Part shown: in pieces, positions 7,738 through 12,397 of the stretch
Numbering within the stretch: the stretch's first letter is position 1
Layout of the letters: each line of letters begins with the position of its first letter
Origin: an uncultured Verrucomicrobia subdivision 3 bacterium
GTDB taxonomy: Bacteria; Verrucomicrobiota; Verrucomicrobiia; Limisphaerales; UBA11358
Reading direction: 5' to 3'
Length of the DNA stretch: 52,395 nucleotides
Assembly: GCA_903870815.1 (NCBI GenBank)
Contig: CAIQEI010000067.1
Span: 1 to 52,395 of the forward strand
The notes under the pieces: generated by a model
Database searches by the model: none
The model's input: the letters and a program-made list of their open reading frames with translations, nothing else
What the model was told of the DNA's origin: nothing
Position numbers and translations under genes: made by a program

Positions 7738-8205
7738 ATGAACATTGTTCTGCTTGAACCGGAGATTCCGCCGAACACGGGTAACGTGGCGCGGCTGTGC
7801 GCGGCCACGAAATCCACCCTGCATCTCATCGAGCCGTTTGGTTTCAAGCTGGACGATACGCAGCTCAAGCGCGCCGGGATGGATTACTGGCAGCAGGTCG
7901 TGTGGCATCGCTGGAAGAGCTGGTCGGCGTTTGCGGAGAAGCTGCCGGCCAATGCGCGGCTCTGGTTCGTGGAATCCAGCGGCCCGAAAACTTACAGCGA
8001 GGTGAAATTTTCGACAGATGATTATCTGGTCTTCGGCCGCGAGACGGCGGGTTTGCCGAAACAGCTTTTGGAAGAGTACCGCGATAGCTGGCTGCGCATC
8101 CCGATGTTCAATCCGGAATCGCGTTCGCTGAACCTGTCGAACTGCGTGGCGATGGTGTTGTTCGAGGCGCTGCGGCAGCAAGGATTCGCCGGGGAGATTT
8201 TCTGA
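7738..8205 (+). CDS. trmL: tRNA (cytidine/uridine-34 2'-O)-methyltransferase TrmL
   Basis: A 155-residue SPOUT (trefoil-knot) methyltransferase that 2'-O-methylates the wobble base of tRNA-Leu in E. coli. The opening 'MNIVLLEPEIPPNTGNVARLCAAT' and knot motifs 'LVFGRETAGLP' and 'SLNLSNCVAMVLFEALRQQ' are diagnostic, and the length is typical (~157). It lies 59 bp after truA and probably shares its transcript, grouping two tRNA modification genes. A MITE-like repeat starts 9 bp after its stop. Confidence 0.94.
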   Translation: MNIVLLEPEIPPNTGNVARLCAATKSTLHLIEPFGFKLDDTQLKRAGMDYWQQVVWHRWKSWSAFAEKLPANARLWFVESSGPKTYSEVKFSTDDYLVFGRETAGLPKQLLEEYRDSWLRIPMFNPESRSLNLSNCVAMVLFEALRQQGFAGEIF

Positions 8206-8214
8206 AACGGCGGA

Positions 8215-8400
8215 TTAGAGCATTGACAGAAAAGGTGTAGCGATGGGCAGCGAGGATTTTTGTTTTTTTTGGCGAGGCTTCAGCGAAGGCGCAGGTTCGA
8301 AAAACCCTGTAACTGAGCTGAAACGAACCCAAAAACCAAAAAGACCGCTGTCCGCTAGGACCATTAGCCCATCGCTATATATTTGATGGAAATGCTCTAA
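8215..8400. repeat. MITE-like repeat, intact copy A (186 bp)
   Basis: The repeat is bounded by perfect 10-bp terminal inverted repeats, TTAGAGCATT at 8215-8224 and AATGCTCTAA at 8391-8400. A second inverted match lies at equal distance inside (TAGCGATGGGC at 8238-8248 and its complement GCCCATCGCTA at 8367-8377), giving 34-bp imperfect ends. No coding sequence is inside. The same element occurs in two halves around the IS110 element (10006-10098 and 11705-11798). It fills the space between the convergent genes trmL and the M50 protease, and its right end supplies the TAG stop of the protease. T-runs on both strands near the middle may end transcription. Confidence 0.85.
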
Positions 8401-9047
8401 TTCAGCGCGATTCTCACACCGAAGGTTCGCACCAGCAACTCCAGCGTGCCATAAGTCACGAATCCCAACGCATTGCGGACCGGCGGAACTTGCAGCAGTA
8501 CGATGATGATGATAAACCCGAACCGCGCAAAGTTGGCGTAGGTCTCATGGCTCATCCCGGTCGCTACGCGCAAAATGTGCGAGCCGTCCAGCGGCGGCAC
8601 CGGAATCAGGTTGAAAAAACAAAGGATCAAACTCAACCCCGCCGCCCGCAAACACAACTCGATCATCTGATCCGATTGAAACATCATGCCGACCCGCGCC
8701 AGCGCCACCAGGCCGATGGCGAGCAGGAGATTCATCCCCGGCCCGGCCAGCGTCACGAGGATGTCATCGCGCTTCGGATGGTTGAGATTGTAGGGATTGA
8801 CCGGCACGGGCTTCGCCCAGCCGATCAGAAAACGTCCCGCGCCCGGCATGAAAATCATCAGCAGCGGCAGCAGCACCGTGCCGATGGGGTCGATGTGCAC
8901 GACGGGGTTCAGGGAGACGCGGCCCTGCAGGCGCGCCGTGTCGTCGCCGCATTTCCACGCCGTCCACGCGTGGCCGTATTCGTGAAAGGTCAGCAGCGCC
9001 ACCAGCATCAGATACTGGATCAGTCCGTCGGCTATGTTTGGGTCCAT
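8397..9047 (-). CDS. Site-2 protease family (M50) membrane metallopeptidase
   Basis: A 216-residue polytopic protein of the short M50 group. The zinc motif HEYGH lies in the first helix ('LVALLTFHEYGHAWTAWKCGDDTA') and the distal ligand region is 'CFFNLIPVPPLDGSHIL'. Between them are 'LNPVVHIDPIGTVLLPLLMIF' and 'GWAKPVPVNPYNL', which are characteristic of this subfamily. About five hydrophobic segments are visible. I start at ATG 9047 (MDPNIADGLIQ); 20 more residues upstream are polar and non-conserved. The last codons and the TAG stop lie at the end of the repeat at 8215-8400, so its 3' end may have been altered by that insertion. The substrate is unknown. Confidence 0.9.
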   Translation of the reverse strand: MDPNIADGLIQYLMLVALLTFHEYGHAWTAWKCGDDTARLQGRVSLNPVVHIDPIGTVLLPLLMIFMPGAGRFLIGWAKPVPVNPYNLNHPKRDDILVTLAGPGMNLLLAIGLVALARVGMMFQSDQMIELCLRAAGLSLILCFFNLIPVPPLDGSHILRVATGMSHETYANFARFGFIIIIVLLQVPPVRNALGFVTYGTLELLVRTFGVRIALN

Positions 9048-9192
9048 CGCCCCCAGTCTAAACCGTTCGCCGCCGGTGAGTCGAGGCTGTGAATCGTTGG
9101 AGTTCAAGCTTTAGCTTGTCGGCGACCTCAAGCGGGAATGCCCATGTGAATTTGCTTTGCGCGGACGGACCAAAACACTTTAACATCGCCGC

Positions 9193-9229: not shown

Positions 9230-10000
9230 ATGCCACAACTTGAAGGAAAAACCGGTATCGTCTTCGGCGTCGCCAACAAACGCTCCATCGCCTGGGCCAT
9301 CGCGCAGGCCTGGGCCCGGGAAGGCGCGAAGCTGGCGTTTACCTACCAGGGCGAACGCGTGAAGGAAAATGTCGAGGAGCTGGCCGGCACCTTCGGTGCG
9401 GACACGCTGATCCTGCCCTGCGACGTGACCAAGGACGAGGACATCGACCGCGTGTTCAGTGAGGTCGGCGCGAAGTTTGGCAAATTAAACCTGCTCCTGC
9501 ATTCCGTGGCGTTCGCGCCGAAGGCCGCGCTCGAAGGCGAATTTGTGAACACCACCCGCGAAGCTTACCGCGTGGCGCACGATGTCAGCGCCTATTCGCT
9601 GGTGGCGCTGGCCCGGGCCGCGGCGCCGTTGATGACCGACGGCGGCAGCATCATGGCCATGAGTTATTTCGGCGCGGAAAAAGTCGTGCCGCATTACAAC
9701 GTCATGGGGGTGGCCAAGGCGTCCCTCGAAGCCAGTACGCGCTATCTCGCCTACGATCTCGGCCCGAAAAAAATTCGGGTGAACTGCATCAGCGCCGGCC
9801 CGGTCAACACGCTCGCCGCGCGCGGCATCGCCGGCTTCATGGAAATGCTCAAGACCTACGAGCAGCGGTCGCCCTTGAAGCGCAACCTGGTGCCCGAAGA
9901 ACTCGGGGCCACCGGTGTGTTCCTGGCCAGCGACGGCGCGGCCTGCATCACCGGCCAGGTGATCTACGTGGACGGCGGCTACTCGATCATGGGGATGTGA
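9230..10000 (+). CDS. fabI: Enoyl-[acyl-carrier-protein] reductase (NADH)
   Basis: A 256-residue FabI, the last step of each fatty-acid elongation round. The divergent SDR features of FabI are present: 'GKTGIVFGVANKRSIAWAIAQAW' as nucleotide-binding loop, 'LLHSVAFAPK', and the catalytic Tyr-x6-Lys in 'YNVMGVAKASLEASTRYLAYDLG', followed by 'RVNCISAGPVNTLAARGI'. The C-terminus 'GVFLASDGAACITGQVIYVDGGYSIMGM' is complete. It stands alone, downstream of a short repeat tract; 5 bp after its stop begins the second MITE copy. Confidence 0.97.
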   Translation: MPQLEGKTGIVFGVANKRSIAWAIAQAWAREGAKLAFTYQGERVKENVEELAGTFGADTLILPCDVTKDEDIDRVFSEVGAKFGKLNLLLHSVAFAPKAALEGEFVNTTREAYRVAHDVSAYSLVALARAAAPLMTDGGSIMAMSYFGAEKVVPHYNVMGVAKASLEASTRYLAYDLGPKKIRVNCISAGPVNTLAARGIAGFMEMLKTYEQRSPLKRNLVPEELGATGVFLASDGAACITGQVIYVDGGYSIMGM

Positions 10001-10005
10001 TCCGG

Positions 10006-10098
10006 TTGGAGCGTTTGAAGAAATGCTGTAGCCCTTCGGAGCGAGGATTTTTGGATTTTGGCGAGGCTTTGGCGAAGGAGCAGGTTCGAAGCAACCCT
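10006..10098. repeat. MITE-like repeat copy B, left half
   Basis: The left 93 bp of the repeat seen intact at 8215-8400. The end TTGGAGCGTTT is a diverged form of TTAGAGCATT, and the interior shares 'GCGAGGATTTTTG', 'TTTGGCGAGGCTT' and 'GCAGGTTCGAA' with copy A. Similarity stops after AACCCT at 10098, exactly where the IS110 element begins. Together with 11707-11798 it rebuilds a 185-bp element, one base shorter than copy A. Confidence 0.82.
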
Positions 10099-10113
10099 TC
10101 CCATGAACTACCT

Positions 10114-11460
10114 CTATGTACTGGTCGAAGGCGTCTCTTTGGGTTGGAAATTTGGAATGACGACATGGCCGAGTTGTCTGGCCAGACGCACCAAGGCTCG
10201 CCGTTTAGTTTCCAGGACCTGCTCTTCGTATTTTGCCAGGCCTTGCTCGACGTAGCTGCCTCCATGCACCATCAAGCGCCAGAACCAGACGGCCAGTTTT
10301 CTGGCCAGCGCCACGTTCGCCAGCAGGCCTCCCCGCCGAGCCGCCATGCGGCGGTAAAAACCGCCTAAAGCCAGATGCTTGCTGCGCGCCAGGCTCCGCG
10401 CTATGACGCAAAATATCCGACCCGTGCGATTGCGTTTGCGTCCGATCGAGCGCCGATATTTTCCACTCTGATGACTTCCCGGCACCAACCCGGCCCAAGC
10501 CGTGAAGTGCTTCTCGGTGGGCCACGCTTTCAGGTCCGTCCCCACTTCGCCCAGAAGCTGCAACCAGCTATAGTCAGTGTGGGCAGGCAACACGGTCACG
10601 TCTTTACCGCCACACCAACGCACCAGCAGGCCATGCAAGTCCGCGATGTCAGGGGCATTGACGCCGGGCTTTCGCAATGACCGCTTCGGCTCGTCGGTTT
10701 GGGTGGGCGGCCCGTTGATCTCACGCAAGACATTCGCAATCTCCTGATCACACGCCGCGATGAGTTGCTGGTAATGTTTCCAGCTTTCCTTTGCCTGCTT
10801 CAAGGCAAAGAGATGCTGTTCCTGCCAGTTTCCGCGCAACGATTCGATGACTCGGACCCGCTTGTTTTCGCGAATGCTGTGGTCGCAAAGCTCTAGCAAC
10901 CGCTCCGGGTTGCGTTCCCCGGCGAGGATGCCCTCAATGACCCTCTGCCCGCTCACCCCCGAAAGACTGCTGATCACGTCATGGAGCTTGATATTCATTC
11001 GCTCCAAAGCTTTTTGCTGGAGTTGAATGCAACTGGCGGCATTGGCAATGTGATCGCACCGGAGACGTAAATAATCCTGCAATCGCCGCACGTGCTCCGG
11101 CGGGACAAAGCCCGCGCGCAACAAACCATGAGCGTGCAAGGTCGCCCCCCACTGGCAATCCTGCATATCGCTCTTGCGCCCCGGCAGATTGCGCGTCTGC
11201 TTGCCATTGACCATCATTACAGCAAACCCCGCCGCTTCCAACACGCTATAGAGCGGCAGCCAGTACACTCCTGTGGCCTCCATCGCCACCGCCTGCGCCC
11301 CCTGGCTTTTCAACCAGTCCCGCAACCGATGCAACTCGGCCGTGACAGCACCAAACACCTCCGGCGTACCCCCGGCGATGGACACGTGAAGCTTTTCGCT
11401 GCCCACGTCGACAAAAGCAGCATGCTCATCGAGCAGATTCAATTTGACCGCTTGATTCAT
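10114..11460 (-). CDS. IS110-family transposase/recombinase
   Basis: A 448-residue IS110 recombinase. The N-terminal RuvC-like DEDD domain shows Asp18 in 'FVDVGSEKLHVSI', Glu61 in 'AVAMEATGVYW', and the acidic pair in 'GRKSDMQDCQW' near residues 100-103. The C-terminal Tnp_20 domain has 'FTAWAGLVPGSHQSGKYRRSIGRKRNR', containing the serine nucleophile region. A coiled-coil stretch links them (about residues 155-275). No frameshift or stop is seen, so it is probably functional. Known of the family: it works with a structured non-coding bridge RNA to pair donor and target DNA. It is somewhat longer than typical members (~330-400). Confidence 0.93.
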   Translation of the reverse strand: MNQAVKLNLLDEHAAFVDVGSEKLHVSIAGGTPEVFGAVTAELHRLRDWLKSQGAQAVAMEATGVYWLPLYSVLEAAGFAVMMVNGKQTRNLPGRKSDMQDCQWGATLHAHGLLRAGFVPPEHVRRLQDYLRLRCDHIANAASCIQLQQKALERMNIKLHDVISSLSGVSGQRVIEGILAGERNPERLLELCDHSIRENKRVRVIESLRGNWQEQHLFALKQAKESWKHYQQLIAACDQEIANVLREINGPPTQTDEPKRSLRKPGVNAPDIADLHGLLVRWCGGKDVTVLPAHTDYSWLQLLGEVGTDLKAWPTEKHFTAWAGLVPGSHQSGKYRRSIGRKRNRTGRIFCVIARSLARSKHLALGGFYRRMAARRGGLLANVALARKLAVWFWRLMVHGGSYVEQGLAKYEEQVLETKRRALVRLARQLGHVVIPNFQPKETPSTST

Positions 11461-11706
11461 AGGGTTTTCCTTTCATCGCCGCTGGCCATAAGCCCAAAGG
11501 CAGAATCTGGAAGAAGATAAATCTTCCCAACGGGAAAACCCTTTCGGGCCTCACCAAAATGTGCACCAGCCAGCCTTCAGAACCATCCTGTGACACGGGC
11601 TCAAAGCACCATAATGCTGTACGGTTATATTTGCTCATGGCCAACGACTAACAAGACTCTACCCAGTTCATGGGCCGTGAGCAGTTTCAAATTGAAACTG
11701 GAAGCT
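11461..11706 (-). ncRNA. Candidate IS110 bridge RNA region (non-coding upstream end)
   Basis: This is the 246-bp non-coding part between the element end and the transposase ATG. By analogy with IS110-group elements such as IS621, the bridge RNA should be transcribed from here in the transposase direction. Read that way, it contains GTCACAGG (complement of 11587-11594), which pairs over 8 nt with the rebuilt target CCTGTGAC spanning the CT core. It also holds AGGGTTTT (complement of 11535-11542), resembling the other half of the target. The strong stem CAGTTTCAA/TTGAAACTG lies at 11682-11700. No transcript boundary can be seen; the assignment is inference. Confidence 0.45.
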
Positions 11707-11798
11707 GTGACTGAGCCGAAACGAAGCCAAAACCTAAAAAGACCGCCCTCTTACTTCAGCCAAACCGAACGGCTACAGTTATTTTGAAAATGCTCTAA
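11707..11798. repeat. MITE-like repeat copy B, right half
   Basis: The right 92 bp of the repeat. It shares 'ACTGAGC(C/T)GAAACGAA', 'AAAAAGACCGC' and the terminal AATGCTCTAA (11789-11798) with copy A. As in copy A, the terminal repeat provides the TAG stop codon of the convergent minus-strand gene, here the flavin reductase (stop at 11795-11797). Confidence 0.82.
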
Positions 11799-12397
11799 TC
11801 CGGCCGCTTCAGCTCAAACCGATCGCTGGTCTTGCAATACCAGTGCGGCGACGCCATCCGGCCGATGGTTAGAAGTTTTTCCGTGCGCACCCGCTTCTTC
11901 TCCGCGTCAAACAGTTCATCGCGGAGGTGAATGCGCTTGATTAGGCCGATGACCACGCGGTTGCCGCCGATCTGCAACGTGCCCCATTCCACACATTCCA
12001 GACTCGCCGGCGCCTCGGCGATGCGCGGCGGCTTCACCCCGGTCGACGGCGCCGCGTGCAATCCGGCGCGCTTCAGCTCATTTTCCCCGAACGGCAGCGA
12101 CGCGGCGCACTGGTTCATGGCTTCGGCGATGGCTTCGTCCACGAGGTTCACAACGAATTCGTGCGTGGCGCGGACATTGAGCGCGGTGTCCTTCGGCGTG
12201 CCGTTGTCGCGGTCGCCGGGCGCAAAGGCGCAGATCGGCGGGTTCGCCCCCAGCAGGTTGAAGAAGCTGAACGGCGCGGCGTTCACCCGGCCGTCGGCGC
12301 TCAGGGTGGTCACCAGCGCGATGGGGCGGGGCGTGACGAGGCTGGCCAGGATCGGATAAGCGCGGTCGGCGTATTCTTTTTCGAGATCAAGTTCCAT
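11795..12397 (-). CDS. Flavin reductase family protein (FMN-binding split barrel)
   Basis: A 200-residue protein with the flavin-reductase-like split-barrel pattern. The opening 'YPILASLVTPRPIALVTTLSADGRVNAAPFSFFNLLGANPPICAFAPG' gives the FMN phosphate-binding 'PRPIALVTT-x-x-x-DG-x-x-N-x-APFS' block, and 'KDTALNVRATHEFVVNLV' is the next conserved strand-helix unit. The partner and substrate cannot be told; members reduce flavins for oxygenases or act as oxidoreductases. It lies 9 bp downstream of rsmB and is probably cotranscribed. Its stop codon lies in the adjacent repeat. Confidence 0.88.
   Translation of the reverse strand: MELDLEKEYADRAYPILASLVTPRPIALVTTLSADGRVNAAPFSFFNLLGANPPICAFAPGDRDNGTPKDTALNVRATHEFVVNLVDEAIAEAMNQCAASLPFGENELKRAGLHAAPSTGVKPPRIAEAPASLECVEWGTLQIGGNRVVIGLIKRIHLRDELFDAEKKRVRTEKLLTIGRMASPHWYCKTSDRFELKRPD

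What the first reader, a model, noticed from the sequence alone, without database searches (positions are those of the whole stretch)
10006..11798. IS110 element caught inside a MITE, with the empty target site present 1.6 kb upstream
Seen: copy A of the repeat (8215-8400) is uninterrupted at 186 bp. Copy B is split into 93 + 92 bp by a 1608-bp IS110 element, and rejoining the halves at a shared CT dinucleotide rebuilds 185 bp collinear with copy A. Known: IS110 elements recombine at short cores without inverted repeats, and several target REP or other repeats. Inference: this member targets the MITE family, a self-propagating nested arrangement.
Basis: partly seen in the sequence, partly recalled or inferred. 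Interest (0 to 1): 0.75.

Follow-up and report, generated by a model that had tools for sequence, protein, structure and literature searches.

The report
RNA-guided IS110 inside a MITE
A bacterial jumping gene of the RNA-guided IS110 family sits in the middle of a repeated palindromic element, its own guide RNA appears to aim it there, and stripped-down copies of it occupy the same nucleotide in four other copies of that repeat.

Summary
A 1,608-bp IS110 element (10099-11706) splits a 185-bp MITE-like repeat at a CT core. Boundaries are supported by homologs from several phyla with matching ends in unrelated flanks. The left end encodes a predicted bridge RNA: its target guide (GUGUCACAG) matches the repeat beside the core over 7 nt, and its donor loop (UUGGGAAG) matches the element's own right end over 7 nt. 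Across relatives, both guides fit their own target or end far better than mismatched pairings (p = 5e-5 each). So "this member targets the MITE" is supported; targeting follows this element's guide and is not a family habit. Copy A is a diverged sister subfamily without the exact guide match, not the pre-insertion site. New: four other MITE copies hold a 57-bp insert at the same nucleotide, made only of the element's two tips. These guide-less mini-IS110s look younger than the MITEs around them, suggesting movement in trans. A related genome has comparable 93-bp minis, and two IS110s whose guides match each other's right ends, in an A-B-A-B array. Known mechanism; target, minis and array are new variants.

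The parts
10006..10098 (+). left half of MITE copy B, including the CT core at 10097-10098
   Evidence: 92-97% identical to other copies
11707..11798 (+). right half of MITE copy B
10099..11706 (-). IS110 element, 1,608 bp with one CT core (AG on the transposase strand)
   Evidence: ends conserved in homologs with unrelated flanks; donor loop matches the right end
10114..11460 (-). IS110 transposase/recombinase, 448 aa
   Evidence: Pfam PF01548 and PF02371 over cut-off; NCBIfam NF033542 'IS110 family RNA-guided transposase' 195 bits against a cut-off of 140
11461..11706 (-). long left-end non-coding region (246 bp)
   Evidence: conserved in homologs
11488..11640 (-). predicted bridge RNA (conserved core; ends approximate)
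   Evidence: alignment A3 of 18 homologs, consensus of 28 pairs, 13 with changes on both sides; the surrounding non-coding region 11461-11663 folds with z = -2.9
11588..11596 (-). left target guide GUGUCACAG; 7 nt including the AG core match the MITE (CAGTCACAG)
11523..11530 (-). donor loop guide UUGGGAAG; 7 nt match the right end (TTCATGGGAAG)
10100..10109 (+). right-end arm of the 10-bp subterminal inverted repeat CCCATGAACT / AGTTCATGGG
11665..11674 (+). left-end arm of the 10-bp subterminal inverted repeat
10108..10112 (+). CTACC direct repeat, inner copy 1; the 57-bp minis correspond to a deletion between this and 11659-11663
11659..11663 (+). CTACC direct repeat, inner copy 2
8215..8400 (+). 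MITE copy A, uninterrupted, different subfamily, CTGTAAC at the site

Best explanation
An IS110-group insertion sequence with a left-end bridge RNA was inserted by guide-directed recombination into the centre of a MITE. The left target guide GUGUCACAG pairs beside the AG/CT core with the MITE sequence GTCACAG, and the donor loop UUGGGAAG pairs with the element's own right end. The same element type has left 57-bp mini-elements (left tip plus right tip, no transposase, no RNA) at the identical nucleotide in four other MITE copies. These were most likely inserted in trans by recombinase and bridge RNA from a full copy. Shown: boundaries, core, conservation of the ends, the covariation of guide with target and donor with end across homologs, the minis and their identical site. 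Inferred: expression of the RNA, the recombination itself, and trans-mobilisation of the minis.
For: Boundaries and core. Family. Target guide against own flank, 32 loci: mean 6.1 nt matched against 3.3 in mismatched pairs; 26 distinct guides, 6.0 against 3.1, no permutation of 20,000 as good. Donor loop against own right end, 30 loci: 6.6 against 4.0, none of 20,000. Conserved RNA with compensatory changes. All occupied MITE copies have the exact guide match GTCACAG (5/5) against 4/12 empty ones (one-sided p = 0.02). All five insertions are in MITEs although GTCACAGG also occurs at 16 non-MITE sites (p = 0.001 if sites were equal). Minis are more alike than their host MITEs: L021/L023 0/57 against 17/181; L022/L025 1/57 against 38/181 (p = 0.004 and 2e-5 under equal rates). 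L023 and L025 each have an empty MITE as nearest sister (support about 0.97).
Against: Only one full copy in this genome, so target choice rests on one full insertion plus minis. The right target guide could not be identified: covariation not significant (p = 0.26) and no match in this element. A 7-nt match alone does not explain why 16 other GTCACAGG sites are empty. Some relatives show weak guide matches (L076, L099, L107, L112), partly because the boundary search was automatic. No expression or activity data.
Confidence: 0.85

Rival explanations
1. The 57-bp insert arose once by deletion (between the CTACC repeats) inside an IS-bearing MITE and was then copied by MITE transposition or gene conversion, with no mobility of the mini itself.
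For: The mini is exactly what a deletion between the CTACC direct repeats would leave; all four minis share that junction, and the MITE is itself a multicopy element.
Against: Minis differ less than their host MITEs and have empty sister copies. In the related genome G072, 93-bp minis lie in mostly different flanks, nearly all ending in GGAAG as the guide of the full B-type element predicts. Gene conversion restricted to the centre remains possible.
Confidence: 0.35
2. The true IS110 ends are inside, at the CTACC repeats, and the IS inserted into a pre-existing 57-bp palindromic element that already sat in the MITE.
For: The 57-bp sequence exists without the IS in four MITEs, with CTACC at the junction.
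Against: Homologs from several phyla carry the same tips (..CATGAAC / GTTCATGG..AG) in unrelated flanks, and the donor loop covaries with the outer right end TGGGAAG. Target guides match flanks outside the tips.
Confidence: 0.04
3. Chance insertion: the IS110 landed in the MITE without guide specificity and the 7-nt match is coincidence.
For: One full copy only; 7-nt matches are not rare genome-wide.
Against: Five non-core positions matching at a fixed register has probability near 1/1000, the family-wide covariation is strong, and four minis sit at the same nucleotide.
Confidence: 0.05

Closest known systems
IS621 and the IS110 group with left-end bridge RNA (Durrant et al. 2024, PMC11208160)
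   Same: DEDD recombinase, long left end with an RNA carrying target and donor loops, 2-bp core (CT), short right end, insertion into a repeated palindromic sequence (REP for IS621)
   Different: 448-aa recombinase; 10-bp subterminal inverted repeat instead of 2-3 bp; the target is a MITE centre; right target guide not identified; mini-derivatives present
IS1111 group / seekRNA elements such as ISPa11 and ISKpn4 (Siddiquee et al. 2024, PMC11187229)
   Same: RNA-guided, subterminal inverted repeats, right-end extension of about 3 nt, repeat or attC targets
   Different: RNA is upstream of the transposase gene (left end), left-end extension about 30 nt, longer transposase
REP-targeting IS elements ISPpu9, ISPpu10, ISPa11 (Tobes and Pareja 2006, PMC1525189)
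   Same: fixed insertion site in an extragenic palindromic repeat
   Different: the repeat here is a MITE-like element of about 185 bp with inverted ends and 2-bp flanking duplications
IS4321/IS5075 targeting ends of Tn21-type transposons (Partridge and Hall 2003; cited in PMC11208160 and PMC11187229)
   Same: an IS110-family element aimed at another mobile element
   Different: here the target is the MITE centre, or (in the related genome) the right end of another IS110

Membership tests
IS110 family | N-terminal DEDD (RuvC-like) and C-terminal Transposase_20 domains | tested here: met
   PF01548 56.5 bits and PF02371 37.2 bits, both over cut-off; NF033542 195 bits
IS110 family | no terminal inverted repeats, insertion at a 2-bp core | tested here: met
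   CT shared at both junctions; empty copies lack the insert
IS110 group (bridge RNA) | long non-coding left end upstream of the transposase, short right end | tested here: met
   246 bp against 15 bp
IS110 group (bridge RNA) | target loop matches the insertion site, donor loop matches own ends, covarying in relatives | tested here: met
   for the left target and left donor guides
IS110 group (bridge RNA) | right target guide matches the right side of the target | tested here: inconclusive
   p = 0.26; no match in this element
IS110 group (bridge RNA) | short (2-3 bp) subterminal repeat | tested here: not met
   10-bp repeat CCCATGAACT/AGTTCATGGG; long repeats in relatives too; the literature records exceptions in both groups
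IS1111 group | subterminal inverted repeats of 7-17 bp | tested here: met
   10 bp
IS1111 group | long non-coding region downstream of the transposase (right end) | tested here: not met
   right end only 15 bp
IS110 family | circular intermediate and recombinase activity | not testable with these tools
   needs bench work
MITE | short, non-coding, multicopy, inverted ends, short target duplication | tested here: met
   about 185 bp, about 20 copies, ends TAGAGC..GCTCTA, mostly TA duplications
MITE | shared ends with a full transposon that moves it | not tested
   parent transposase not searched for

The most novel reading that the evidence does not exclude
Guide-less mini-IS110 elements of only 57-93 bp, consisting of the two tips, are mobilised in trans by bridge RNA and recombinase of a full copy and so spread to the guide's target. 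In a related genome two IS110s whose guides match each other's right ends extend alternating arrays without limit.
Probability: 0.5. Interest if true: 0.7.

Novelty: new variant of a known kind. Interest (0 to 1): 0.5.

Why it matters
It gives a natural case in which an RNA-guided recombinase is aimed at another mobile element, so the repeat supplies many intergenic landing sites. The minis suggest that the donor need be no more than about 57 bp, which bears on minimal donor design and on how non-autonomous IS110 derivatives arise, for which I found no description in the open papers searched. The reciprocal pair in the related genome is a testable natural example of two guides aimed at each other's ends.

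Tried and rejected
(1) I first placed the IS ends at the inner CTACC repeats, because four MITE copies hold the 57-bp tips without the IS. Homologs with the same tips in unrelated flanks and the donor-loop match to the outer end ruled that out. (2) The right target guide: looked for on the 5' side of the internal loop, no significant covariation. (3) Other IS110s in MITEs of the genus: 14 genomes searched (own plus 13 others with MITEs), 30 IS110 loci checked, only the window element lies in one. (4) A second, different insert in a MITE of G071 (L149) and one in L029 looked like minis at first but do not carry both tips. (5) phmmer against solved structures found nothing at E 0.001, so catalytic residues were not mapped on a structure. 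(6) The file of the whole genome was not available. (7) Literature searches on IS110 with MITE, non-autonomous, tandem or nested found no description of mini-IS110s or reciprocal arrays, but only open papers are held.

Full report
Observation. The repeat halves 10006-10098 and 11707-11798 flank 1,608 bp, share CT at the junctions, and rejoin to 185 bp collinear with copy A. The own-genome search finds about 20 copies of the repeat, and the same repeat occurs in 19 of 49 genomes of the genus. Its ends are inverted (TAGAGC..GCTCTA) with 2-bp flanking repeats, mostly TA, and it folds as one long hairpin with the insertion site close to the apex. Copy A belongs to a diverged subfamily; copy B is closest to L022.

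What the element is. The 448-aa product (10114-11460, minus strand) matches PF01548 and PF02371 and NCBIfam's IS110 family RNA-guided transposase. The long non-coding end (246 bp) lies upstream of the gene and the right end is 15 bp, as in the IS110 group described in PMC11208160. A 10-bp subterminal inverted repeat recalls the IS1111 group; exceptions to that division are already recorded (PMC11187229).

Boundaries. Four other MITE copies (L021, L022, L023, L025) carry a 57-bp insert made of the two tips of this element. That first suggested that the IS had entered a resident 57-bp palindrome.

Guides. In the left-end RNA a variable stretch after a conserved GCCCG ends in AG and matches the left flank of each element's own insertion. 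Over 32 loci the mean match is 6.1 nt against 3.3 in mismatched pairs; over 26 distinct guides 6.0 against 3.1; no permutation of 20,000 reached the observed value. The boundary for this test was chosen as the best match within an 80-base zone, in the same way for true and mismatched pairs. A second variable stretch matches the right end of the same element (6.6 against 4.0 nt, 30 loci, none of 20,000). These are the target and donor loops of a bridge RNA. The consensus structure of 18 sequences has 28 pairs, 13 with changes on both sides, and leaves the target guide in an internal loop. In the window the guide GUGUCACAG (11588-11596) matches the MITE's CAGTCACAG over 7 nt, and the donor loop (11523-11530) matches TGGGAAG of the right end. 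The right target guide was not found (p = 0.26).

Targeting. All five insertions of this element type found in the genome are at one nucleotide of the MITE. The occupied copies all read CTGTGAC; of 12 empty copies four do (one-sided p = 0.02, related copies). The octamer GTCACAGG occurs at 20 places in the genome, one of them the guide itself and three in empty MITEs; the 16 others are not MITEs and are empty. Either further contacts matter, or the minis spread partly with the MITE. In 13 other MITE-bearing genomes of the genus no IS110 was found in a MITE. Relatives hit other sites, among them what look from memory like a REP in a Pseudomonadales MAG (L075) and a common alphaproteobacterial repeat in Bradyrhizobium (L081).

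Minis. L021 and L023 minis are identical over 57 bp while their MITEs differ at 17/181; L022 and L025 differ at 1/57 against 38/181. L023 and L025 have empty MITEs (L034, L036) as nearest sisters, with support about 0.97. This fits separate acquisition of the mini, or precise loss, or gene conversion of the centre. Equal rates were assumed. Movement in trans is inferred, not shown.

Related genome. In the FR_27 Pedosphaerales MAG (G072) two IS110 types carry guides that match each other's right ends: A has guide ..UGGAGAG and right end ..TGGGAAG, B has guide ..UGGGAAG and right end ..TGGAGAG. On C12 they stand as A-B-A-B with each junction at the predicted core. A 93-bp B-type mini without gene or RNA occurs in full about five times, with shorter partial matches at others; the left flanks mostly end in GGAAG, as B's guide predicts.

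Verdict. A new member of a known mechanism with a new kind of target, accompanied by mini-derivatives that I did not find described in the open literature searched.

Noticed in passing
L206 (G072:C12:383500-393000), L207, L208, L210: Two IS110 types with guides matching each other's right ends form an alternating A-B-A-B array with junctions at the predicted cores.
   Followed up: partly
L216-L222 (G072): 93-bp mini-IS110s of B type (plus partial copies), without gene or RNA, with left flanks mostly ending in GGAAG as B's guide predicts.
   Followed up: partly
L090, 3' flank: The right end (TGGGTAG) is followed directly by another IS110 left end whose guide reads UUGGGUAG.
   Followed up: no
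L079, 3' flank: Chlorobiaceae element whose guide (GGCGGAAAG) matches its own right end over 6 nt, followed directly by a second copy of its left end.
   Followed up: no
window 8215-8400 and 10006-11798: Both MITE copies lie between convergent genes (7738-8205 + / 8397-9107 -; 9230-10000 + / 11795-12397 -) and reach the stop codon of the right-hand gene; as long hairpins they could act as two-way terminators.
   Followed up: no
L029 (G000:C82:9380-9900), insert between the MITE halves: A different insert of about 130 bp with its own inverted ends in the centre of a MITE; the start resembles the IS110 left tip in reverse.
   Followed up: no
L149 (G071:C141:59968-60218): A MITE in another genome of the genus with an unrelated insert of roughly 60-70 bp next to the same site.
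   Followed up: no
L094 and L078: Subterminal inverted repeats of 22 and 35 bp in IS110s with a left-end RNA, longer than described for either group.
   Followed up: no
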